NCBI GenBank assembly: GCA_028821605.1
Contig: JAPPFM010000050.1
Span: 62,001-126,000 of the forward strand
Reading direction: 5' to 3'
DNA length: 64,000 bases
From: Candidatus Poribacteria bacterium
GTDB lineage: Bacteria > Poribacteria > WGA-4E > WGA-3G
Numbering within the stretch: the stretch's first letter is position 1; the number at the start of each line of letters is the position of its first letter. The position numbers were made by a program, and so were the translations under genes. Of this stretch, positions 30,140 to 42,781 are shown one piece after another. The notes beneath the pieces were generated by a model. It had not been told where the DNA came from. It searched no databases and was given only the letters and a program-made list of their open reading frames with translations.

Positions 30140-31048
30140 ATGAATATCCTACGCAAAAAAAGCAGGGCGAATCTGCCGTTTTCCGAGACCGCGATTGAAT
30201 TGTTTATCCGCCTATGTGGCATTAGCTCAATCATTTTTGTATTCGGTATTTTCTTCTTCGTGTTCCGGGAGGGAGCCGGTTTCCTTTTCAACGGTTTAGA
30301 TCTCGGACAGTTTCTAACAAGCGTAGAGTGGCAACCAACCTCACTAAACAATAAACGATATGGTGCCTTCGCTTTGATTGTTGGGACCTTTAGCGTCACC
30401 GTCTTAGCGATGTGTATCGCTGTTCCATTTGGACTTGGGGCGGCAATCTTTGTATCGGAGTTCTGTAGCCCAAAACTGAGAGAAGCCTTCAAGATCATCA
30501 TCGAATTGCTCGCCGCTATCCCTTCTGTTGTATGGGGATTCATCGGACTGACTTTGATGAATCAGTTGATTATCACAGTGTTCAACGCTCCGATTGGTTT
30601 AACAATGCTCAATGGTGGCATCATGTTGGCATTAATGAGTGTGCCTATCATCGTCTCTATAGCAGAAGACGCGCTAAAAGCCGTACCAGATTCCTATCGT
30701 GAAGCGGCGGAAGCCCTCGGTGCGACCCGATGGCAGGTGGTTTACCGTGTCCTTTTACCCGCAGCGAAAAACGGATTACTCGCAGCGGTGCTGCTCGGTG
30801 CTGCACGCTCTATCGGTGAAACGATGGCGGTGCTTATGGCAACCGGACACTCCGTGAACATTCCGTCAGGACCCCTCTCTTGGATTCGCACGCTTACAGC
30901 AACAATCGCCGCCGAATTAGGCGAAGTCGCGAGAGGCGATGAACACTATCAAGTCCTCTTTATCATCGGTATTCTGCTTTTCACTATCACGTTTGTGGTG
31001 AATCTCATTGCCGACTTAGTGATTAAAGGTATCCGTCAAGAGCAGTGA
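30140..31048 (+). CDS. pstC: phosphate ABC transporter permease PstC
   Basis: An inner-membrane permease of 302 residues with six predicted helices. The EAA loop reads YREAAEALGATRWQVVYRVL. The RSIGET motif, whose Arg and Glu are known to matter for phosphate transport in E. coli PstC, is intact. It should pair with PstA. Start ATG at 30140, 8 nt after pstS. A 427-nt insertion-like segment separates it from pstA. Confidence 0.94.
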   Translation: MNILRKKSRANLPFSETAIELFIRLCGISSIIFVFGIFFFVFREGAGFLFNGLDLGQFLTSVEWQPTSLNNKRYGAFALIVGTFSVTVLAMCIAVPFGLGAAIFVSEFCSPKLREAFKIIIELLAAIPSVVWGFIGLTLMNQLIITVFNAPIGLTMLNGGIMLALMSVPIIVSIAEDALKAVPDSYREAAEALGATRWQVVYRVLLPAAKNGLLAAVLLGAARSIGETMAVLMATGHSVNIPSGPLSWIRTLTATIAAELGEVARGDEHYQVLFIIGILLFTITFVVNLIADLVIKGIRQEQ

Positions 31049-31049
31049 T

Positions 31050-31433
31050 AGACCCCGCCCTAAAGGATGGGACTTCTGCAATCATTTACAGAAGCATTCG
31101 TGCGATCAACGACCACTGCTTTCTATGAAAGACTCATGCAGCCTACTGCAACAGACGCTACCCCGACTGCGACACCGAAGTGTCCTTACGAAACTTGTTT
31201 TGAGACGTATATTTCAAATGGGATTCAGCATTACCTGTCTTTCCCTACTAACGTCTGTAAGCTACGACTTTCTGGCTACGACATCAGAGCTTTACACTAT
31301 AGGAAGTCTAACCATGAGGCGAGTAACAGCCCTCTATAGCAACCTTACACTCTGATATTATTATAGCAGATTTAATCAGTTATATGAAGAAAAAAGCGTC
31401 TACATCTCCAAACTAAAGCATGGAGTTTTGACG
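31050..31433. mobile_element. IS200/IS605-like remnant without transposase
   Basis: The interval between pstC and pstA starts with CCCCGCCCTAAAGGATGGGA and ends with CTCCAAACTAAAGCATGGAG. Both are imperfect hairpins with the TAAAG centre common at ends of IS200/IS605 elements. A CTTCTG/CAGAAG repeat follows the first. Open frames inside (e.g. 31067-31339) look like chance or decayed sequence with no TnpA or TnpB motif. On the minus strand the first end would be the right end. I read this as a non-autonomous or decayed element. Confidence 0.45.
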
Positions 31434-31475
31434 CTGAGGAAGTTGATAATATTAATTTAAGGATAACACGGAAAC

Positions 31476-32393
31476 ATGAACACCGATATGCAGGCATCAC
31501 CACAAACAATGTTCACAGAGACAGCAATTGATAAACAGAAGCGGCGGATAGAGAATGTAATGCGAATCTTCTTCCTCGTGATGACGAGCCTGATGATTCT
31601 TCCACTGCTTCTCATCATCGGTTACCTCTTCTATAAGGCACTGCCGGTCCTCTCCCTCGATTTTCTATTTACGAATCCGAAGGACAATATGCGAGCGGGC
31701 GGACTCTGGGCACCGTTCCTTGGCACAATCTATTTAGTGGTGGTTTCTCTGTTAGTGTCGGCACCCATCGGTGTGTTCGCAGCGGTGTATCTCAACGAGT
31801 ACGCCCGTGAGAATTGGTTCACACGTATTACAAATTTAGCCGTTGTAAACCTTGCAGGTGTGCCGAGCATCGTCCATGCCCTGTTCGGTGTTGGAGCATT
31901 TGTACTCTTTGCGGGTTTAGGCGAATCCATCTTAGCAGCTTCGCTCACATTGGCAATCATGACGCTTCCGGTAATTATTGCCAGCACAACGGAAGCCCTC
32001 AAAGCCGTACCTATGTCTTTCCGAGAGGCATGTTGGAACCTTGGGGCAACCCGATGGCAGACGATTCGTCGCATCGTTATTCCAAACTCCATTAGCGGCA
32101 TTTTGACGGGTGTTATATTACAAGTATCGCGCGCAGCAGGCGAAACAGCACCTATTATGTTCACGGGTGCTGTCTTTTATAAAACTATTGTAGAAGGAAA
32201 CCTTTTTGCCTATAATATAACAGAACAGTGTATGGCACTATCCCTGCACCTCTTTACAATCTCAACACAGGTTCCGGATGTCACAGAAGGCGTTCCGTAT
32301 GGGACCGCAGTTGTTCTTGTAGGTAGTGTCTTACTCGTCAATGCAGTATCAATTGCGCTAAGGGTGTATTTCCGAACTCGGAAGAAGTGGTAG
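31476..32393 (+). CDS. pstA: phosphate ABC transporter permease PstA
   Basis: A 305-residue inner-membrane permease. The EAA loop is FREACWNLGATRWQTIRRIV, and the RAAGETAP motif is complete. The C-terminal region (TQVPDVTEGVPYGTAVVLVGSVLL) is standard. It forms the translocation pathway with PstC. AAGGA lies ~11 nt before the ATG. It is followed by a dispersed repeat and then a potassium channel gene rather than directly by pstB. Confidence 0.94.
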   Translation: MNTDMQASPQTMFTETAIDKQKRRIENVMRIFFLVMTSLMILPLLLIIGYLFYKALPVLSLDFLFTNPKDNMRAGGLWAPFLGTIYLVVVSLLVSAPIGVFAAVYLNEYARENWFTRITNLAVVNLAGVPSIVHALFGVGAFVLFAGLGESILAASLTLAIMTLPVIIASTTEALKAVPMSFREACWNLGATRWQTIRRIVIPNSISGILTGVILQVSRAAGETAPIMFTGAVFYKTIVEGNLFAYNITEQCMALSLHLFTISTQVPDVTEGVPYGTAVVLVGSVLLVNAVSIALRVYFRTRKKW

Positions 32394-32396
32394 AGT

Positions 32397-32489
32397 GGTT
32401 ATCAGTTATCAGTTGTCAGTTAAAGAGACTTGTGGCAGGCAGCGTAATGATAACGGACCACAATACCCCTAACTAATGACTGACAATTC
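32397..32489. repeat. TTATCAGT-type repeat with inverted right arm
   Basis: The left arm has GTTATCAGTTATCAGTTGTC then AGTTAAAGAGACTTGTGGCAG. The right arm (32467-32489) reads CCTAACTAATGACTGACAATT, roughly complementary to the left. The ATG in this right arm is the first possible start of the next gene. Compare 23240-23297 and 36600-36682. Confidence 0.6.
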
Positions 32490-33249
32490 TAAAAACATGA
32501 ATAAAGACAGATTAAGAGCGATTATTGAAGGGAATATCTGCAGCGGTCTCATCCAGTTTCTGATTCTTGCTTCCGCTGTCGTTTTTGTGGTGGAATCTGA
32601 TAGTGAAGACCCACACGCACTTCACTTCATTATTGTGGATGGGATGTTTTTTGTCCTATTTTCGATAGAATACATCTTGCGCGTCTACATTGAGCCGAGA
32701 AAACGGGATTTCATCTTCAGCTTCTATGGCATAATAGACTTACTCGCTATTTTACCGTCCCTGTTTCTGCTGCCGGGGTTCCGTGTCCTTCGGATACTAC
32801 GGTTTCTGCGAGTTTTCAGAATCTTTAAGGCGACCCGATTTATCCTTGCAGTTGATCGGCTTACTGAAGCGTTAAACGAAATCCGGCGAGAACTCTTGGC
32901 ACTGGTCTTCCTGTCATTAATGTTAGTCTATCTCGCTGCGTGTGGTATCCACTACTTTGAAAGAGCAGTACAACCAGAAGATTTCGGCTCCATCTTCGAT
33001 TCGATGTGGTGGGCTATCGTGACACTAACAACAGTCGGTTATGGAGACGTCTATCCGATAACACCAGGTGGAAAACTTTTCACCGCTCTCGTTACGCTTG
33101 TGGGGGTGGGGTTGATCGCAATCCCATCCGGATTGTTAGCATCGGTTTTGACGGAATCACGGGTGGAACGCGAACAAATAGAGGAAAGAGAAAAAGGCAC
33201 AGAAAATCAATCCATGGAAGGCAATGACGACACGCATGCAAACGGATAG
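32476..33249 (+). CDS. voltage-gated potassium channel (Kv type)
   Basis: Six helices are predicted. The fourth is a voltage sensor with Arg at every third position (103, 106, 109, 112, 115). The pore helix and selectivity filter read TLTTVGYGD (filter at 186-191), which specifies K+. The C-terminal ~35 residues form a charged coil. The ATG at 32476 lies inside a repeat arm, so the first residues (MTDNS) derive from repeat DNA; ATG 32497 is an alternative. The 3' end overlaps the next ATPase gene by 26 bp. Confidence 0.92.
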   Translation: MTDNSKNMNKDRLRAIIEGNICSGLIQFLILASAVVFVVESDSEDPHALHFIIVDGMFFVLFSIEYILRVYIEPRKRDFIFSFYGIIDLLAILPSLFLLPGFRVLRILRFLRVFRIFKATRFILAVDRLTEALNEIRRELLALVFLSLMLVYLAACGIHYFERAVQPEDFGSIFDSMWWAIVTLTTVGYGDVYPITPGGKLFTALVTLVGVGLIAIPSGLLASVLTESRVEREQIEEREKGTENQSMEGNDDTHANG

Positions 33250-34021
33250 CCGCAACGGCTCACAAAACACGCCTGTAATTGAGATTACCGACCTGAAGGT
33301 GCGCTATGGCGACAGTCCCGCCCTGAACGGTATCTCATTTGATGTCTACCAAAACGAGATTCTCGGTATCATCGGTCCCGCGCAATCCGGTAAGACGACA
33401 CTTCTGAAGGTTATCAACAGGACCCTTGAATTTACACCCGATACAACCGTGGAAGGCTCCGTAAAACTGGATGGCGTAGACATCAGGACAATTGGCGATG
33501 TATATGGGTTACGCCGACGTATCGGTATGGTGCTCCCTTTGCCAGTTGGGTTGCCACTTTCCATATATGATAACGTTGCCTTCGCACCTCGGACAGCAGG
33601 AATCCGCGCGAAATCGGAACTGGATGAAATCGTTGAGCGATGTCTGCAGCAAGCGGCACTCTGGGACGAAGTAAAAGACCGATTAAACTCACTCGGCACC
33701 AAATTATCGGGTGGACAACAACAACGTTTGACAATCGCTCGTGCCCTTTCGCATCAACCGGAGATTCTCTGTCTCGACGAATTCTCAATCGCTGTTGATC
33801 CTGTTACAACGATGCGTATTGAAGAGGTGCTAAAAACGTTACAGTCAGAAATGACGATATTACTCGTCACGAACTTAGTGCAACAGGCGAAACGCTTGGC
33901 GAACCGCACTGCCTTTTTTCTCAACGGTGATCTCATTGAGATTGACACAACGGATGTAATTTTTTCCGAAAATCCTGCGAATCAAGCTACTTATGACTAC
34001 GTAAATGGGACGTTTGGGTAA
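33224..34021 (+). CDS. PstB-like ATPase with altered Q-loop and H-loop (paralogue 1)
   Basis: A 265-residue PstB-family domain. Walker A (GPAQSGKT, 51-58), signature LSGGQ (161-165) and the Walker B Asp-Glu (185-186) are present. The Q-loop Gln is replaced (MVLPLP instead of MVFQKP, Pro105). The H-loop His is Asn217 (VTNLVQQ for VTHNMQQ). The DEPCSALD motif has become DEFSIAVD. Its own ATP site should therefore be weak, while its signature can serve a partner's site. It overlaps the channel gene, so it is in the pst operon. Confidence 0.88.
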   Translation: MTTRMQTDSRNGSQNTPVIEITDLKVRYGDSPALNGISFDVYQNEILGIIGPAQSGKTTLLKVINRTLEFTPDTTVEGSVKLDGVDIRTIGDVYGLRRRIGMVLPLPVGLPLSIYDNVAFAPRTAGIRAKSELDEIVERCLQQAALWDEVKDRLNSLGTKLSGGQQQRLTIARALSHQPEILCLDEFSIAVDPVTTMRIEEVLKTLQSEMTILLVTNLVQQAKRLANRTAFFLNGDLIEIDTTDVIFSENPANQATYDYVNGTFG

Positions 34022-34142: not shown

Positions 34143-34907
34143 ATGAATTATAGTATTGAAACTGAAAATCTCAGCCTCTGGTATGGTGATTTTCAGGCAC
34201 TCATTGATGTCAACGCAAAAATACCCGACGGCCAGATAACGTCGCTTATTGGTCCTTCTGGATGTGGGAAAACAACGTTACTTCGCTGCTTTAACCGTGT
34301 CAATGAACGCTACGGTAACGTTACAACAAAGGGAAAAATCGAGATTCTGGGAAAAAATATCTACGATGCCGATGTTTCCTTGCCGGAACTTCGGAAAGCT
34401 GTCGGTATGGTCTTTCAGAGGCCGAACCCGTTACCGATTTCGGTTTACGAAAATATCCTATTCGGATTGCGTATTCACTCGCCACTGCGGAGTATGACAC
34501 GAACAGAATCGGATCAGATTGTTGAGGAAGCACTAACATCCGTTTTTCTCTGGGAGGACTTGAAAGATAACCTGAAGGTGCGAGCGACATCCCTCCAACT
34601 TGAACAGCAGCAGAAACTCTGTATCGCCCGTCTGTTACCCCTGAAGCCGAAAATTATTCTGATGGATGAACCCTGCTCAGCGTTAGATGCAAAAGGCACG
34701 GGTGCCGTTGAAGAATTAATGGAAATCCTCGCAGGAACGTATACATTTCTAATCGTGACACATAACATGGCACAGGCGCGGCGCGTCAGTAAAGAGTGTA
34801 TCTTTATGTTCCTTGGCGAACTCATCGAACATAGAGAAACGCAGGCACTGTTTGAAGACCCACAACACGAGAAAACCGAGGATTATGTGCAGATGCGATA
34901 CGGTTAA
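34143..34907 (+). CDS. PstB-like ATPase lacking the signature motif (paralogue 2)
   Basis: A 254-residue PstB-family ATPase. Walker A GPSGCGKT (37-44), Q-loop Gln92 (MVFQRP), Walker B with Asp175-Glu176 (MDEPCSALD) and H-loop His207 (VTHNMAQ) are all intact. The LSGGQ signature is replaced by LQLEQ (151-155). Its ATP site could be catalytic only if a partner subunit supplies a signature, which paralogues 1 and 3 still do. No strong ribosome site was found before the ATG. Confidence 0.88.
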   Translation: MNYSIETENLSLWYGDFQALIDVNAKIPDGQITSLIGPSGCGKTTLLRCFNRVNERYGNVTTKGKIEILGKNIYDADVSLPELRKAVGMVFQRPNPLPISVYENILFGLRIHSPLRSMTRTESDQIVEEALTSVFLWEDLKDNLKVRATSLQLEQQQKLCIARLLPLKPKIILMDEPCSALDAKGTGAVEELMEILAGTYTFLIVTHNMAQARRVSKECIFMFLGELIEHRETQALFEDPQHEKTEDYVQMRYG

Positions 34908-34948: not shown

Positions 34949-35773
34949 ATGAATTCCTTGATGATGCGTCCAGAACTCAGAAAAAAAATTGTTTTGCTGA
35001 GCATTACTGTTATAATAGAGATTGTCGCGCTCATTTTCTTTTGGAATGTCCTGAAAAAAGCAGATGTAACGAATATACAAACGTCGCCAGCATCGGTTAC
35101 TGCAGACGGACTGCCGAACCTACTCGGCGATCTCAATCTGATTCTACCCATCAGTTTTTTGGCTATTTTGCTTGGGATCGCGTGCGCCTTTTACGTAGAA
35201 GAATGGCTTTCAGCGACAAATTGGGTTCGGCGTTTCATCGAAAGTCAGGTCGCCCTTTTGACTGGCATCCCTTCACTTTTGTATGGTCTTTTGGCAGTCG
35301 CTGTTTTCTTCGGCTATGCTAGCGTTTTCAAAGCGACTCTTCAGAATGCGGAAGGATCCGCTTTAGCAGGAACACCCTTTCAGCGTAACACCGCCCTATT
35401 TTACACGGAGACGTTAATCTTCATTTTGACCGTAATGCCAGTTGCAATCAAGACGACGCAGAAAGCACTCCGATCAGTGGAAACACCAATCCGTGAATCC
35501 GCTTACACGTTAGGTGCCACCCAATGGCAAGTCCTAACGAAACAGATCGTGCGACGTGCTTTTCCACGGATCCTTGCGGGAGGATGTAGAGCGATGGCTC
35601 GTGCATTCGCCGCTGCTGCATTGCTTGTCGCCATTCAGGCATGGAGTTATACAACGGAACTCAGAGGGTTTCCCGACAGATTCATTCTATTTTTAGGAGG
35701 CACCCTGCTATTGAGTAACGCCTCCAGTTTCCTTATTGAAGTATACGTTCCGGGTTCAACACAACACAATTGA
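34949..35773 (+). CDS. extra PstA/PstC-like permease lacking the GET motif
   Basis: A 274-residue permease related to PstC/PstA. Helices, the GIPSLLYGL segment and the EAA loop (IRESAYTLGATQWQVLTKQI) are kept. Where PstC reads RSIGET and PstA RAAGET, this protein reads RAFAAA (218-223): the Arg remains but Gly-Glu-Thr is gone. Phosphate movement through it is therefore doubtful. It lies between PstB-like paralogues 2 and 3, and only one such extra permease is present, so it may dimerise with itself or replace a partner. Confidence 0.8.
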   Translation: MNSLMMRPELRKKIVLLSITVIIEIVALIFFWNVLKKADVTNIQTSPASVTADGLPNLLGDLNLILPISFLAILLGIACAFYVEEWLSATNWVRRFIESQVALLTGIPSLLYGLLAVAVFFGYASVFKATLQNAEGSALAGTPFQRNTALFYTETLIFILTVMPVAIKTTQKALRSVETPIRESAYTLGATQWQVLTKQIVRRAFPRILAGGCRAMARAFAAAALLVAIQAWSYTTELRGFPDRFILFLGGTLLLSNASSFLIEVYVPGSTQHN

Positions 35774-35814: not shown

Positions 35815-36594
35815 GTGCCAGCGATGCAAACTGAAGGCAAACAACCTATCTTGAGCATCCGTGACCTAAATGTGTGGTTCGGCAATAAACAGATTCTGAA
35901 CTCTCTCTCCTTTGAGGTTCAGCAGGGACAGGTGACTGCGCTTATTGGACCTGCCAACTGTGGTAAGAGTACGCTTGTCCGATGTATCAACCGCTTAAAC
36001 GACTTTACACCGAATTTCAAGTTCACCGGCGAAATACTTTTTAAGGGCAGCGATATGTACGCTGAAAAAACGGATGTCGCTGCTATTCGGAAACAGATTG
36101 GGATGGTGTTCCGAAAACCGATGCCATTCCAGTGCTCTATCTATGAAAATGTAGCATACGGAGCTCAGATTTCAGGCGTAAATCGTGGCTCACAACTGGA
36201 TGCCATCGTTCAGAAAAACCTCCAAAAAACAGGCCTCTGGGACGATGTTGAACCTATTCTGGACGAAACACCAGAACAACTCTCTACAGGACAGCAGCAA
36301 CTTCTCTGTATCGCGCGCGCTTTAGCTGTTGAACCAGAAATTCTAATATTCGATGAACCGTGTGGTGAACTCGATCCGCTTGAGACGGTCAAAGTTGAGA
36401 CACTCGTACGAAATCTGACAGAAAACTGCACGCCTATCTTTGTTACGAATAAAAGAAGGCAAGCCGCTCGCGTCTCTGACACCGCAGGATTTCTCTATTT
36501 CGGCGAATTAATTGAATTTGGAATGACGGAAAGGATTTTTACAAATCCACAGGACACCAAAACAGAACAGTATGTGACAGGAAGATTAGGTTAA
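35815..36594 (+). CDS. PstB-like ATPase with altered Q-loop and H-loop (paralogue 3)
   Basis: A 259-residue PstB-family ATPase. Walker A GPANCGKS (45-52) and the Walker B Asp180-Glu181 are intact. The signature is LSTGQ (156-160), a mild change. The Q-loop Gln is Arg100 (MVFRKP), the H-loop His is Asn212 (VTNKRRQAARV), and the D-loop reads GELD. Its lesion pattern parallels paralogue 1. The GTG at 35815 or the ATG at 35824 starts it; neither has a clear ribosome site. Confidence 0.87.
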   Translation: MPAMQTEGKQPILSIRDLNVWFGNKQILNSLSFEVQQGQVTALIGPANCGKSTLVRCINRLNDFTPNFKFTGEILFKGSDMYAEKTDVAAIRKQIGMVFRKPMPFQCSIYENVAYGAQISGVNRGSQLDAIVQKNLQKTGLWDDVEPILDETPEQLSTGQQQLLCIARALAVEPEILIFDEPCGELDPLETVKVETLVRNLTENCTPIFVTNKRRQAARVSDTAGFLYFGELIEFGMTERIFTNPQDTKTEQYVTGRLG

Positions 36595-36599
36595 AATAA

Positions 36600-36682
36600 T
36601 TGTCAGTCTTCGGTTTTCAGTTTTCAGTAGGAAGAGGTTTCTGTGGCTTCCACGGCCCCCTCTTTAACCGATAACTGATGAC
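36600..36682. repeat. TTATCAGT-type repeat upstream of phoU
   Basis: Left words TTGTCAGT, GGTTTTCAG, AAGAGG and TTTCTGTGG; right arm CCTCTTTAACCGATAACTGATGAC in inverted sense. The ATG inside the right arm is the first in-frame start of phoU. Confidence 0.55.
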
Positions 36683-37331
36683 TTCTCCTATGTTAGAACA
36701 CGAAATCACGGGACTTCAGCATAAACTTTTAGAAATGGCAGGGCTTGCGGAACAGATGCTGCGCCAAGCCGTTGAATCTGTCTTAACGCGAGATAAAGCA
36801 TTGGCGCAACTCGTTGTTGATACAGATGATAAGATTGATTTGCTTGAAAACGAGATCGAATCGTCGTGCATCCAACTAATCGCGCTCCATCAACCGGTCG
36901 CGACAGAGCTTCGATTTCTAACAACAGCGATGAAGGTTAACCACAACATTGAAAGAATAGCGGATAAAAGCGTTGCTATCGCTAAACGGAGCATCGAGTT
37001 GTCAGAACATCCACCGGTCAAACCTTTCGTAGATTTGCCGTATGCGGCACAAGTGATTCAGTCGATGGTAAAGGACGTGCTGGATGCGTTCGTCAATCGA
37101 GACGCTGAATATGCGCTAAGGATTCGAGAACGGGACAGCGAAGTTGATGAAATCTATGAAAGAATGCTGAATGAACTGCTGACCATTTTGAGTGAACACC
37201 CTAAACTTATCCAACCGGGTATCAGCCTCCTACTGCTCTTCCGGCATTTGGAACGGATAGGTGACCTCGCTGCACATATCGGTGAAGAGGTCTATTACCT
37301 CGTCAAGGGCGATGTCATCCGACACTCTTAA
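36678..37331 (+). CDS. phoU: phosphate transport regulator PhoU
   Basis: A 217-residue all-helical protein made of two PhoU three-helix units, with the metal-binding Glu/Asp patterns (ETEIES-like: DTDDKIDLLENEIE in the first; RERDSEVDEIYERML in the second). PhoU links the Pst transporter to the PhoR/PhoB response and damps uptake. The ATG at 36678 is inside a repeat; ATG 36690 (MLEHEITGL) gives the usual N-terminus. No phoR/phoB pair is in the window. Confidence 0.92.
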   Translation: MTSPMLEHEITGLQHKLLEMAGLAEQMLRQAVESVLTRDKALAQLVVDTDDKIDLLENEIESSCIQLIALHQPVATELRFLTTAMKVNHNIERIADKSVAIAKRSIELSEHPPVKPFVDLPYAAQVIQSMVKDVLDAFVNRDAEYALRIRERDSEVDEIYERMLNELLTILSEHPKLIQPGISLLLLFRHLERIGDLAAHIGEEVYYLVKGDVIRHS

Positions 37332-37354: not shown

Positions 37355-38578
37355 TCAAGATTCCTGTTCAGTTTCCGCTGGCGGATCAAAATGGACATCC
37401 AGTTGTGGGAATGCGATTGTAATATCATGTTCTTTAAATTTATGCCAGATTATGAAATGGAGATCACTGGCGACATCGAAACGCTGAAAAGAATCTGGAA
37501 TCCATGCCAATAACTCAAAATCTAAGGATGAATTCCCAAAAGCAATAAAGCGAACGAAAGGAGAAGTAACGTTGCTGATGTTCGGAATTGGTTCTTTGAT
37601 CACGCCGAGATGCTCATCTGCGGCATCAAGTAGCACTTGCTTGACGAGATCCACATCTGAACCGTACGACACCCCCACCGGAATACGAAGCCGGTACAGA
37701 TTGTTCGCGTGCGTGAGGTTATGAACCGCTTCCGAAATCAGTTGAGAATTCGGAACGATAAGCTCCTTCTCATCAAGCGAAACGATGACTGTCGAGCGGA
37801 GATTAATGCTACTGACTCTGCCAAATATATTAACATCCATAATCTCAACGAGATCCCCAATTTTGATAGGGCGTTCAAAAATCAGAATAAACCCTGAAAT
37901 CACGTTTGAGGCGATATTCTGTAAGCCGAAACCGATACCGATACTCAAACCACCAAAAATTATCGCTAAACTTGTGAAACTCACGCCGATAGTGCTGAGA
38001 CTGACAACAACACCGATAATGATTAGGCTGAAGTGAAGAAAACGGAGTAAGATAAATTGGGTATGTTCCGCAATTTGAAACGCTTGTAGCACCTGTCGCC
38101 GTAGCACCCACTGCACATATTTAGACAGGATAAACATTCCAAAGACAATTACGAACCCATAAAAAAGCCTCGCCAAGGTCAATTTACGTACATCTTCACG
38201 GGCTTCAGTAGGTGATCCTTCCCCATCAACCTCAGTTTCAGTGGCACTCTGGGAAGGGTGAAACAGATCCGTGAGGGGGTAAGCAAAAAGCTTGCCGAGG
38301 AATCCTGTGCTAATTCCCGCAAACTGGAATGCCAAACCAATTCCAAAAACCAGAACAATAAGGAACAGAATCGCGAGTAATCGATTACTGAGGGTTTCTG
38401 GCATCCTGAACCTATTGAAAAGCCGACGAAACCAGCGGCGTAGAAAGCCTCCGATTATTAACGCTGCCGCCAAAGTCCCAATCAATAAAACGATTTGGGT
38501 AACCTGTACAGGTTCTTCACCCAAAGTGATGACACGCGTTTGAAGTAAATCAAGAAATTGTTGAATCAACTCATCCAT
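37355..38578 (-). CDS. MscS-family mechanosensitive channel (407 aa)
   Basis: A small-conductance mechanosensitive channel that opens under membrane tension and releases osmolytes. About four to five helices precede the conserved pore-lining helix and beta domain (GFGLQNIASNVISGFILIFE, then RPIKIGDLVEI and SLDEKELIVPNSQL). The long N-terminal membrane part places it nearer YbdG/YnaI-type than minimal MscS. It is the last of three adjacent MscS genes and convergent with phoU. Confidence 0.9.
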   Translation of the reverse strand: MDELIQQFLDLLQTRVITLGEEPVQVTQIVLLIGTLAAALIIGGFLRRWFRRLFNRFRMPETLSNRLLAILFLIVLVFGIGLAFQFAGISTGFLGKLFAYPLTDLFHPSQSATETEVDGEGSPTEAREDVRKLTLARLFYGFVIVFGMFILSKYVQWVLRRQVLQAFQIAEHTQFILLRFLHFSLIIIGVVVSLSTIGVSFTSLAIIFGGLSIGIGFGLQNIASNVISGFILIFERPIKIGDLVEIMDVNIFGRVSSINLRSTVIVSLDEKELIVPNSQLISEAVHNLTHANNLYRLRIPVGVSYGSDVDLVKQVLLDAADEHLGVIKEPIPNISNVTSPFVRFIAFGNSSLDFELLAWIPDSFQRFDVASDLHFIIWHKFKEHDITIAFPQLDVHFDPPAETEQES

Positions 38579-38596
38579 CTGATGCTATCCTACTCG

Positions 38597-39478
38597 CTAA
38601 CGCGCTGTATAAAGGTATTGTGGCGGGAGTAATTGTTCGTCTTTTGGTGTTAGCAGTGCCTCCCTTTTCACGTAGGCAAACTCAATTTGTCCCTCATGCA
38701 TAAACGCCTTAGAAATCCGTTCGACGATTAACGTTGAAGTACTTTGCCGGTTCACAGCACGGACACGATACCTAAGTTTAGCAACTATGCCAGACGGAAT
38801 GAACTCAAATCGCACATAAGGCGATTCACCTGTTTCCTCACATATTTCGGTTGTCACTTCTGTCGCCTGTTCACACATAATTTGCTCGGCACGCGTTATA
38901 TCCGAACGATATGTCAACCGAATGATGACCTCATCGAGAATGTATTTCTCGTCTCGTGTATAGTTAATCACATTCCATCGAAAAAGATGTTGGTTCGGAA
39001 TCAGGACGCTGCGTCCAGATTTCTCTTCTCCGCCAATCGTTCCGCCGACCTGATCCAATTGTGTATACATGATCGAGATGTTTCGCACATCACCAATAGT
39101 TACACCCAAAATAACGCGATCTCCAATCTGATAAGGTTTCTTCAGAATAATCAATAACCATGCGGCTAAGTTCATGATCGGGTTTCGGATACCCCACCCC
39201 ATCAGTGTCATAATAAAGGCTAATGACAGTCCTATGATCCCAAAGACATCGGAAAACATAAAGATGACGAGAACACCTATCGAAAACATGAAGGTGTACC
39301 GCCACGCAAAAAAGAACCGGTTTGCATTCTCCGGTTTGTAGGCGCGCGCTTCTGTAAACTTGCGCATCTGTGATGTCAAGCGGAGATAGACGATGATGGC
39401 ACCGATCACAACCAGCCCCATCCACACCACAGAAATATACTTGAAATTCAGGAGTGCTTCCCAGACTTCCAAAAACAT
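38597..39478 (-). CDS. MscS-like channel (293 aa, paralogue A)
   Basis: Helices at ~15-35, 65-80 and 85-115 lead into the MscS core (GWGIRNPIMNLAAWLLIILKKPYQIGDRV), followed by the beta domain with QLDQVGGTIGGEEKSGRSVLIPN. That last segment, with a Gly-Arg loop, is shared only with the next gene, so these two are recent relatives and differ from the 407-residue channel. It begins two bases after the upstream gene ends, so they are cotranscribed. Confidence 0.87.
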   Translation of the reverse strand: MFLEVWEALLNFKYISVVWMGLVVIGAIIVYLRLTSQMRKFTEARAYKPENANRFFFAWRYTFMFSIGVLVIFMFSDVFGIIGLSLAFIMTLMGWGIRNPIMNLAAWLLIILKKPYQIGDRVILGVTIGDVRNISIMYTQLDQVGGTIGGEEKSGRSVLIPNQHLFRWNVINYTRDEKYILDEVIIRLTYRSDITRAEQIMCEQATEVTTEICEETGESPYVRFEFIPSGIVAKLRYRVRAVNRQSTSTLIVERISKAFMHEGQIEFAYVKREALLTPKDEQLLPPQYLYTAR

Positions 39479-39480
39479 AA

Positions 39481-40377
39481 TTAACTCTCATAGGAATCCG
39501 TTGGTAATGCGGGCTGGTCTTTCCATGAGTAAATGACTTCCGAATGCGCATAGCAGAATTCAACCGTCTTACTCTCAGAGAAGCCATGGAAAATAATCTT
39601 GACGATGTCACTGAGGCTTTTCGCACGGTCCACCGGACGCGTCTTGTAGCGTAACCGCATCATTACACCTGCATCAAACAACTCCGCACGGATAAACGGT
39701 TCTTCGCCAATCTCGTTGATGACATCCGCTGTAACCACCTTTGCTGCATCAACCAGAATCCGCTCTGCTTCTTCCCAATTCGATTCAAAGGTAATCCGAA
39801 CAGGCACTTCAACCAAAATATACTCTTCCTCCAAAGTATAGTTCGTAATCGTTTGTCCAAACAGAATCGCATTTGGAATGAGGATACCGCGCCCGGAACG
39901 TTCTTCACTGGACACTGTTCCACCGACTTGATTGAGAATAACGTGCGTTAAAGTAATGTCCACGACATCACCTGTGATGCCAGCGATAATAACACGATCG
40001 CCAATCTTAAAGGGACGTTTCAGGATGAGCATTAACCACGCTGCAATCCCTGTGACAGGTGCCTGCAAGGACCAGCCCAAAACCATACCGAGAAATCCCG
40101 CCGAAATACCGAGCGTTTTGAGAGAACCACTCAGACTAATAATACCGAAGATCGCAATAATAGCCGTCCAGATATAGCCCCACACCGCCATGAAATTTTG
40201 GGCATTTGTTTCCAATTGGGCGTGCTGGTAAACATATCGCTTGACGAAATACCCCAAAATCGCCTTGAGAATGAGTAGCGTAGCAATCGTGATAACACTT
40301 AGCAGAATGCCTTTAAACGGTGAATTGATAATAGCGTTTATGAAATCACCTAAACGATCAATGAATTCCAGAAACAT
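39481..40377 (-). CDS. MscS-like channel (298 aa, paralogue B)
   Basis: Same layout as its downstream neighbour: three helices, then GWSLQAPVTGIAAWLMLILK and RPFKIGDRVII, then NQVGGTVSSEERSGRGILIPN. A GGGGATGGA ribosome site precedes the ATG at 40377, so it probably leads this pair. Two paralogues with matching interfaces could form mixed heptamers; that is inference. Confidence 0.87.
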   Translation of the reverse strand: MFLEFIDRLGDFINAIINSPFKGILLSVITIATLLILKAILGYFVKRYVYQHAQLETNAQNFMAVWGYIWTAIIAIFGIISLSGSLKTLGISAGFLGMVLGWSLQAPVTGIAAWLMLILKRPFKIGDRVIIAGITGDVVDITLTHVILNQVGGTVSSEERSGRGILIPNAILFGQTITNYTLEEEYILVEVPVRITFESNWEEAERILVDAAKVVTADVINEIGEEPFIRAELFDAGVMMRLRYKTRPVDRAKSLSDIVKIIFHGFSESKTVEFCYAHSEVIYSWKDQPALPTDSYES

Positions 40378-40426: not shown

Positions 40427-42700
40427 CTAATCAATCGATATTTGCTCGATTGCATGAACAAACAGGACATCGTTCGCGTCTGCATAGGAGCGCAAAGTTT
40501 GACTTAATTTTTCAGAACCGAGGTCTTCGCCTGTCAAGCCTGCGATGACCAGATCCGTCTGAGAGGATCGGTGCTCTACCTCCTGCTCTAAAGCCTTTTG
40601 GCTGCTGTAAGACACGGAGGTGACGTTATGCATTGAAATCGGCAGTCGTCCCTCTTTCATTAGGGTCGAGAGTCTGTCCGCTTCACGCTCAGCATCCGTA
40701 GCCTCGGAACAAGCGAAAAGCCGAATTTCAGCACGTCTCCAATCAGGATGTCCCACAATAATATACGCGAGCAGCAGCATCATTGGCGCGTTCTTCAAAT
40801 TGTCCTCTGTCACCCAAACATCAATCGTAGAACGATATCCAAAGCGGTACCCTGTTGACCGAAGCACAAGGACATTAAACAGCGAATTCGCAACGAGGCG
40901 TATTCCTTCCTGGACCTCTTCAATTTCGTCAGGGTTATCTCGATCGAATTCAAGGAGAACACAATTATTTGGTAAACCAGAAATTCCCGGCATTTGTAGT
41001 ATTTGCGACAGCGCAAGTTTAAACGTCGGGCAAATTACGGAATCGACGAAGATACCGGCTCTGCTAACCTCTGTCCTTTTAATCAACTCGTCAACATGGA
41101 TACGCGCTTGGAGTTCGCTGGAAAACGAGTAGTCCCCGTGGAACAGGCGAATGAAGTGCCCGAACCCGTGCCTGTGGCAGATCCAGCGAAGCAAATCGAA
41201 ATGCCCGAGTCGCCGTTCACCGAATCGTGTTACTGCGACAATCGACGGACGCCACCCACCCTCAGACGAGATAACGCGGCTCTTTTGTAGGGTAATCTGA
41301 AGCCATCGGGTTAGTTGGAACATCGTCCCTTGGAAGATCGCAGTCAAGTCACGTTGTCCCCTATGACTTCGACGGAGACCGAGGTAAGTGACCGCCATAA
41401 GCCCAATTGAAATGAACGCATATAGCGCGCTGATTTGGAACATCATCAAACCGCACATCACAGTACCTAACAGGGATAAGTACCAACGAGAATGGAAAGT
41501 AGGACGATAGGACGGATTACTCGCAAAGTGCTCAAGGAACGATACTGCACACAGCGCACCGTAGGTTACCATGAAGAACATCGTCAAAATCTGGGCGATA
41601 AAGTCCAACTCACCAATCGCCACGAATACGATCGCAATTATCCCAGATACAGAGGTCGCATACACGGGTTCTTGTGTTTCTCCTATACCCTTTTCCATAA
41701 GACGGTTCAACTTAGGGATAGGTAGCACATTGTCACGGGCAAGCATCTGCAATGTTCTGGGAGCTACCATAATTGAGCCGAGCGCAGAGGAGAATGCGGC
41801 TGCACCCAATCCGACGTAGATTGCAGGACTCCAGAGGGAGATCTTCGCCATGATAAACTCGTCCGCGTCGAGTGCTTCAGGGGTGGCACTCTGTCCTAAT
41901 TTGATAGCAACAAGCACATATATAACCATGCCAGCGAACGTTGCGCCGATCGTACCGAGGGGTATACTTCTTTGAGGGTTTCTTAGATCGCCGGACAATC
42001 CCAAACCCGCAATCATACCGGTGAAAGCGGGAAAACACGTCGCGAAAACTGTGCCAAAACTATCAGGGACCTCAATACGCGCCGTAAGGTTCAACCCTTC
42101 AGGTTGGATTGATTCGGGGCCTTTGCCGAAAAGAAATGAGATGATTGACACCGCTAAGATTCCACAGACAACCCATAAGACCCGAACACCGACACCAGCC
42201 CCCTTCGTGAGCATAAGCACAAGAAGCAAAACAGTAAAAGGTAGACTTATCCAACGGGGATCAGGGGTCAACACATACGTCGTTGCAACCCAATCATAGA
42301 TAGGTTGAAAAGATTGCGCAAACGCGACGATATAGAAAGCGACCGAAATCGCTTGGGAGATATACAGCGCAATTCCGATAGAGCCTCCGATACTCTCGCC
42401 GAAGGAACGGCTGACAATATAGTAGGCACCACCGCCCGCGACACGACGGTTCGTCGCAATCTCGGAAACTGCCAGAACTGTGGGAACAGTCACGAGATGA
42501 CCGAGTGCGATAATCATCAGGCTCCCCCACAGCCCAACGTGTGCCACAGCGTAGCCGAATCGTAAGAAGAGAATTGCCCCGAGAATCGTACTAATCGAGG
42601 CGAGAAACACAGGTGCAGTGCCGAAGCCGTGTCCGTGTTGGGGTCCCGGAACACCGCTGCCAAATCTGGATTCAGATCGTTCTCCTGAGCTTGAGAGCAT
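40427..42700 (-). CDS. SLC12-like cation-chloride cotransporter / APC-superfamily permease
   Basis: Twelve helices of the APC fold (about residues 30-480) with the family's first-helix motif (FLASISTILGAILFLRFG) and GGGAYYIVSRSFG. A ~270-residue cytoplasmic C-terminus (from about 490) resembles the regulatory domain of SLC12 Na/K/Cl cotransporters. It would move Cl- or amino acids with cations. I start at ATG 42700 (MLSSSGERS), which has AAAGGA upstream, instead of 42769. Its position beside K+, Mg2+ and MscS channels supports an ion role. Confidence 0.82.
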   Translation of the reverse strand: MLSSSGERSESRFGSGVPGPQHGHGFGTAPVFLASISTILGAILFLRFGYAVAHVGLWGSLMIIALGHLVTVPTVLAVSEIATNRRVAGGGAYYIVSRSFGESIGGSIGIALYISQAISVAFYIVAFAQSFQPIYDWVATTYVLTPDPRWISLPFTVLLLVLMLTKGAGVGVRVLWVVCGILAVSIISFLFGKGPESIQPEGLNLTARIEVPDSFGTVFATCFPAFTGMIAGLGLSGDLRNPQRSIPLGTIGATFAGMVIYVLVAIKLGQSATPEALDADEFIMAKISLWSPAIYVGLGAAAFSSALGSIMVAPRTLQMLARDNVLPIPKLNRLMEKGIGETQEPVYATSVSGIIAIVFVAIGELDFIAQILTMFFMVTYGALCAVSFLEHFASNPSYRPTFHSRWYLSLLGTVMCGLMMFQISALYAFISIGLMAVTYLGLRRSHRGQRDLTAIFQGTMFQLTRWLQITLQKSRVISSEGGWRPSIVAVTRFGERRLGHFDLLRWICHRHGFGHFIRLFHGDYSFSSELQARIHVDELIKRTEVSRAGIFVDSVICPTFKLALSQILQMPGISGLPNNCVLLEFDRDNPDEIEEVQEGIRLVANSLFNVLVLRSTGYRFGYRSTIDVWVTEDNLKNAPMMLLLAYIIVGHPDWRRAEIRLFACSEATDAEREADRLSTLMKEGRLPISMHNVTSVSYSSQKALEQEVEHRSSQTDLVIAGLTGEDLGSEKLSQTLRSYADANDVLFVHAIEQISID

Positions 42701-42781
42701 CGTCGGTTTCCTTTCGTTTAAAAGATTGAAATAAAACAGGTAGCCGTACGGTGTTGAAATTTCAAGCAAGGCATTACATTC

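What the first reader, a model, noticed from the sequence alone, without database searches (positions are those of the whole stretch)
34949..35773. Extra PstA-like permease without the Gly-Glu-Thr transport motif
PstC has RSIGET and PstA RAAGET in this locus, while the third permease has RAFAAA at the aligned position with the EAA loop still good. In E. coli the Arg and Glu of this motif are needed for phosphate movement. A permease that can still bind an ATPase but probably cannot carry phosphate suggests a sensor or a different ion substrate, in line with the altered ATPases on both sides.
Basis: partly seen in the sequence, partly recalled or inferred. Interest (0 to 1): 0.68.

Follow-up and report, generated by a model that had tools for sequence, protein, structure and literature searches.

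The report
Non-transporting PstA paralogue beside phosphate importer
In a family of Poribacteria, the only recognised phosphate-import operon carries a third permease and third ATPase that have lost the parts needed to move phosphate but are still kept by selection, which suggests that transport and phosphate sensing, normally done by one machine, have been split between two.

Summary
The third permease ("X", 34949-35773) has RAFAAA where PstC has RSIGET and PstA has RAAGET. No Glu occurs at this position in any of 56 orthologues from four genera of one Poribacteria family, while PstA and PstC keep GET. The EAA coupling loop is kept, and a periplasmic segment after the motif is shortened by about 24 residues. 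X is under purifying selection (dN/dS about 0.2). Trees place X, B3 and PhoU with canonical pstA-pstB-phoU operons of related families, so the trio is a captured, altered cassette. The flanking ATPases have systematically changed motifs. B1 has LSGGQ but lost the Q-loop Gln and H-loop His. B2 has all other motifs but LQLEQ in place of LSGGQ. Only a B1-B2 heterodimer gives one complete ATP site, and sister genera have just PstSCA-B1-B2. B3 is altered at four motifs. No other PstB, Pit or Na/Pi importer was found in the genome. Best reading: PstSCA-B1B2 imports phosphate with one competent ATP site, and X-B3 is a non-transporting module kept for PhoU signalling. Origin and motif loss are strongly supported; the signalling role is inferred. 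A different ion substrate is unlikely.

The parts
34949..35773 (+). X: PstA-derived permease without GET motif (274 aa)
   Evidence: in all four genera of the family, 56 sequences aligned; dN/dS 0.12-0.40
35600..35617 (+). RAFAAA, the position of R-x-x-G-E-T in PstA/PstC
   Evidence: alignment with E. coli PstA R220-IAGET
35474..35548 (+). EAA coupling loop of X (residues 176-200), retained; most conserved region of X
   Evidence: region identity 0.62 against 0.28 in the shortened periplasmic segment
29208..30131 (+). pstS (PtsS_2-type phosphate-binding protein)
   Evidence: TIGR02136 222 bits, above cut-off
30140..31048 (+). pstC with RSIGET
   Evidence: TIGR02138 272.9 bits, above cut-off
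31476..32393 (+). pstA with RAAGET
   Evidence: TIGR00974 258.7 bits, above cut-off
32476..33249 (+). K+ channel (Ion_trans, TVGYGD filter) inside the operon
   Evidence: kept in every family-f1 locus that covers this stretch
33224..34021 (+). B1: PstB homologue; LSGGQ intact (33704-33718), Q-loop Gln->Pro (33536-33538), H-loop His->Asn (33872-33874)
   Evidence: LSGGQ and the two substitutions in all 62 aligned sequences
34143..34907 (+). B2: PstB homologue; Walker A/B, Q- and H-loops intact, signature LSGGQ->LQLEQ (34593-34607)
   Evidence: LQLEQ in all 63 aligned sequences
35815..36594 (+). B3: PstB homologue altered in Q-loop (36112-36114), signature LSTGQ (36280-36294), D-loop GELD (36364-36375), H-loop Asn (36448-36450)
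   Evidence: sister to canonical PstB, 98/97
36678..37331 (+). phoU, the only PhoU gene found in the genome
   Evidence: TIGR02135 201 bits; single gene in G000; groups with canonical-operon PhoU

Best explanation
X is a non-transporting paralogue of PstA. Together with B3 and PhoU it descends from a second, canonical pstA-pstB-phoU operon whose pstS and pstC were lost (supported by trees and gene order). Phosphate itself is imported by PstS-PstC-PstA driven by a B1-B2 heterodimer in which one composite ATP site is complete (B2 Walker A/B, Q- and H-loops plus B1 LSGGQ) and the other is degenerate (motif pattern shown; dimer inferred). X keeps the loop that couples to an ATPase but has lost the polar motif needed for phosphate passage and part of the periplasmic segment. 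Coupled to B3, which can probably bind but not efficiently hydrolyse ATP, and perhaps paired with PstC or itself, it forms a slow or static ABC module that holds PhoU and reports phosphate or energy state to the Pho sensor (inferred). Transport and signalling, normally one PstSCAB machine, would thus be split between two sets of subunits.
For: Motif loss fixed in 56/56 X while PstA/PstC keep GET. EAA loop conserved; about 24 residues fewer after the motif than in canonical PstA. Purifying selection on X. Nine-gene order kept in every complete same-genus locus and in the other genera of the family. Trees: X with canonical PstA 100/97, B3 with canonical PstB 98/97, PhoU with canonical PhoU 92/96. 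B1/B2 complementary motifs in 62 and 63 sequences from three families; sister genera have PstSCA-B1-B2 only. No other PstB, Pit or Na/Pi importer in the genome. X-B3 (0.56), B3-PhoU (0.62) and X-PhoU (0.40) rates covary after removing the shared signal, against X-B2 -0.13 and B3-PstA -0.07. Literature: motif mutants lose transport but keep signalling (PMC5775613). Best fold match of an X model is E. coli PstA, 9k3s_A, Z 14.1.
Against: No biochemical data for any of these proteins, and no protein contact between X, B3 and PhoU was tested. Covariation may reflect shared origin and adjacency. A PhoR-like kinase was found (286 bits, below its cut-off), but nothing links it to this operon. The X model is low confidence (mean pLDDT 56). 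X has the highest dN/dS of the nine genes in nearly every pair, so its constraint is weaker. The window's X keeps the Arg that matters in E. coli PstA. The long X branch could distort its place in the tree.
Confidence: 0.55

Rival explanations
1. X is an inhibitory or tuning subunit: it competes with PstA for PstC and B1/B2 and makes non-productive importers, lowering phosphate influx, without a dedicated PhoU signalling role.
For: Coupling loop retained while the motif is lost; weak PstC-X rate covariation 0.27; same operon as PstC/PstA/B1/B2.
Against: X covaries most with B3 and PhoU, not B2 (-0.13) or PstA (0.14); B3 would have no reason to be kept with it.
Confidence: 0.2
2. X is a permease for a different ion, energised by B3.
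For: Fold and EAA loop retained; the periplasmic loop before the coupling region is longer in the window's genus.
Against: No second binding protein or partner permease in the operon; the segment after the motif is shortened and variable; the motif is hydrophobic; B3 is altered at four ATPase motifs.
Confidence: 0.07
3. X and B3 are decaying relics of a lost canonical operon with no present function.
For: Faster evolution and motif loss in both; pstS and pstC of the ancestral cassette are gone.
Against: Open frames in the 56 X sequences collected over four genera and dN/dS about 0.2, far below 1; B3 keeps Walker A and the catalytic Glu nearly everywhere.
Confidence: 0.1

Closest known systems
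PstSCAB-PhoU of E. coli (cryo-EM 9k3s/9k3x/9k3y)
   Same: PstS, PstC, PstA, PhoU; X folds most like PstA; uncoupling of transport from signalling by motif mutations is known there (PMC5775613)
   Different: One PstA and one canonical PstB homodimer do both jobs; no non-transporting paralogue, no degenerate ATPases
Tandem pstB1/pstB2 of Firmicutes (E. faecalis PMC12096839; B. subtilis PstBA/PstBB PMC11466899)
   Same: Two adjacent PstB genes in one pst operon with non-equivalent roles
   Different: Both E. faecalis proteins keep Walker A, LSGGQ and the H-loop; here the motif losses are complementary
Heterodimeric ABC exporters with one degenerate site (TM287/288, BmrCD, TAP, MsRv1273c/72c) and RbsA/NupO fused ATPases
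   Same: One complete and one degenerate composite ATP site
   Different: Those are exporters, or importers with fused NBDs and other lesions (Walker residues); here it is a phosphate importer with separate subunits
Transporter homologues that act as sensors, e.g. UhpC next to UhpT (from own knowledge)
   Same: Paralogue of a transporter kept next to it and used as sensor
   Different: Different superfamily; the sensor role is shown there and only inferred here

Membership tests
PstA (TIGR00974 equivalog) | Score above the curated cut-off of 193.45 bits | tested here: not met
   X scores 98.5 bits; the window's PstA 258.7
PstA (TIGR00974 equivalog) | R-x-x-G-E-T-A-P motif | tested here: not met
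   No Glu at the motif column in any of 56 X
PstA (TIGR00974 equivalog) | EAA coupling loop and BPD_transp_1 fold | tested here: met
PstA (TIGR00974 equivalog) | Periplasmic segment and last helix after the motif (about 81 residues) | tested here: not met
   57 residues median in X against 81 in canonical PstA
PstA (TIGR00974 equivalog) | Common descent with PstA | tested here: met
   X sister to canonical Poribacteria PstA, 100/97; long branch noted
PstA (TIGR00974 equivalog) | Transports phosphate with PstC | not testable with these tools
   needs uptake assays
Asymmetric heterodimeric ABC ATPase pair | Exactly one composite site with all consensus motifs | tested here: met
   B2 Walker/Q/H plus B1 LSGGQ complete; B1 Walker with Pro/Asn plus B2 LQLEQ not
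Asymmetric heterodimeric ABC ATPase pair | The two subunits form a heterodimer | not testable with these tools
PstB (TIGR00972 equivalog) for B1, B2, B3 | Score above the curated cut-off of 343.2 bits | tested here: not met
   278.8, 311.8 and 315.6 bits; no match in the genome reaches it, 13 of 14 control genomes do

The most novel reading that the evidence does not exclude
X-B3 is a bacterial non-transporting ABC regulator that, like sulphonylurea receptors on Kir6 channels, gates the K+ channel encoded in the same operon and ties K+ flux to phosphate or ATP status, with PhoU as a further partner. The channel is present in every family-f1 locus covering that stretch and absent from the simpler PstSCA-B1-B2 operons of the sister genera, so it is found with X-B3.
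Probability: 0.05. Interest if true: 0.9.

Novelty: new variant of a known kind. Interest (0 to 1): 0.62.

Why it matters
How Pst and PhoU report phosphate, by transport activity, by conformation or by internal phosphate, is a long-standing question. Here evolution appears to have repeated the E. coli motif mutations that block transport but leave signalling, and kept the altered copy beside a working importer, giving a natural separation of the two functions. The importer would also be an unusual binding-protein-dependent importer with one competent ATP site built from two separate, complementary ATPases.

Tried and rejected
The 37-40% hits to X in other families are ordinary PstA of canonical operons. 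The fourth PstB-like hit in the genome is an amino-acid ABC ATPase, not PstB. AlphaFold from X orthologues alone was poor (pLDDT 52); adding PstA/PstC paralogues gave 56, with blocks of 70-76 in the core, enough only for a fold-level match. Viral contigs gave almost no PstA relatives. A signature-pattern search in another phylum was not accepted by the tool. Plasmid PstBs are at most about 50% identical to B1 or B2, so no orthologues there; their motifs were not read. Promoter and terminator scans no better than shuffles. No paper found that describes this locus. Decaying pseudogene rejected on dN/dS and intact frames. Different-ion permease judged unlikely.

Full report
The window lies in a 6.0-Mb draft genome whose nearest named relatives are MAGs titled Candidatus Poribacteria. 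All genes of the locus are on the + strand: pstS, pstC, pstA, a K+ channel, B1, B2, X, B3, phoU.

X (34949-35773) has RAFAAA at residues 218-223, aligned with R220-IAGET of E. coli PstA and with RAAGET and RSIGET of the window's PstA and PstC. The nine-gene order is the same in all same-genus loci that are not cut by a contig end (33 of 34 fetched) and in the three other genera of the family wherever the contig covers it. In L044 B3 and in L128 PhoU are split over two frames, which may be assembly errors. In 56 X sequences there is never a Glu at the motif; Gly is Ala in 52, the Pro of GETAP is Leu in 54, and Arg is kept in 44. The EAA loop is kept (R 56/56, E 54/56, G 56/56), as are the Pro-Ser and Gly of IPSxxYG. 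The stretch after the motif is 57 residues in X (median) against 81 in canonical PstA, and the remaining loop is among the least conserved parts of X (0.28 pairwise identity), while the coupling loop is the most conserved (0.62).

X is not a pseudogene: dN/dS is 0.12-0.40 in 14 close pairs, usually about 0.2, against 0.03-0.12 for PstC and PstA. Open frames were found in all the X sequences collected.

The ATPases changed in a pattern. B1 keeps Walker A, Walker B and LSGGQ but has Pro for the Q-loop Gln and Asn for the H-loop His in all 62 sequences. B2 keeps Walker A, Q-loop, Walker B, D-loop and H-loop His but has LQLEQ for LSGGQ in all 63. B3 has a changed Q-loop in most, LSxGQ-type signatures, GELD or xQLD D-loops and Asn for His in all 55 aligned (B3 of L044 was left out as it is split). 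Among pairs of the three only B1-B2 gives a complete composite site, formed by B2 Walker/Q/H and B1 LSGGQ. That follows from the general architecture of ABC dimers; the dimer itself was not tested.

Comparison with relatives gives the history. Genera g3 and g5 of two sister families have PstS-PstC-PstA-B1-B2 with no channel, X or B3 beside them; g5 has instead a PhoU fused to a phosphatase-like domain upstream of pstS. Other Poribacteria have a canonical pstS-pstC-pstA-pstB-phoU operon and no B1/B2. No genome of the 83 in the class was seen with both. In trees X groups with the canonical PstA (100/97), B3 with the canonical PstB (98/97) and PhoU with the canonical PhoU (92/96), and their order pstA-pstB-phoU is kept. 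X-B3-PhoU is therefore best read as a captured cassette. The X branch is long, so its placement rests also on B3, PhoU and gene order.

This locus appears to be the genome's only phosphate importer of a known kind: no other PstB (the next best TIGR00972 hit sits beside an amino-acid-type permease), no Pit (PF01384) and no Na/Pi cotransporter (PF02690) was found in a 98% complete assembly. So PstSCA presumably works with B1 and B2, as it must in g3 and g5, where no third PstB reached the threshold.

For the role of X there is indirect evidence. In E. coli, changing Arg220 of PstA or Arg237 and the motif Glu of PstC to Gln blocks transport while signalling persists (summarised in PMC5775613, which numbers the Glu 240; in the K-12 sequence it is 241). 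The same paper proposes that the conformation of the transporter, set by PstB motif mutations, is what PhoR and PhoU read. Evolutionary distances of X, B3 and PhoU covary after the shared signal is removed: X-B3 0.56, B3-PhoU 0.62, X-PhoU 0.40 (Mantel p about 0.0005 each), while X-B2 is -0.13 and B3-PstA -0.07. Shared origin and adjacency could contribute. Each family-f1 genome searched has matches for one PhoU gene only, in this operon. I therefore favour a non-transporting X-B3 module kept for PhoU signalling, at about 0.55 overall; the loss of the motif and the cassette origin are each much more certain than the role.

A structural model of X (mean pLDDT 56) matches E. coli PstA best among solved chains (Foldseek E 4.5e-06; VIA-align Z 14.1 over 192 residues at 5.5 A), narrowly ahead of other type I importer permeases. 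It supports the fold only, and the alignment behind it included PstA and PstC paralogues. The novelty statement is limited to this phylum, the plasmid collection and the open-access papers searched.

Noticed in passing
window 32476-33249: A K+ channel with an S4-like arginine-rich stretch and a TVGYGD filter sits inside the pst operon and overlaps B1 by 26 nt; in genus g20 a second, pore-only K+ channel of about 120 aa often follows it (e.g. L129 5930-6310).
   Followed up: partly
L127 (PstC), also L052, L056 and most g20 loci: PstC carries an N-terminal extension of roughly 100-130 aa; in L127 it matches DUF805 (PF05656, E 4e-18). Absent from the window's PstC.
   Followed up: partly
L133 2163-3293: In genus g5 a PhoU fused to a low-molecular-weight phosphatase-like domain (PF01895 + PF01451) precedes pstS.
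   Followed up: partly
window 37355-40377 (-): Three consecutive MscS-type mechanosensitive channel genes, followed by a 780-aa amino-acid permease/SLC12-like transporter (40427-42769), next to the pst operon.
   Followed up: no
window 31049-31475: A 427-nt gap between pstC and pstA in an otherwise tightly packed operon, with a 90-aa ORF (31067-31339) of unknown meaning; L034 has only about 30 nt there.
   Followed up: no
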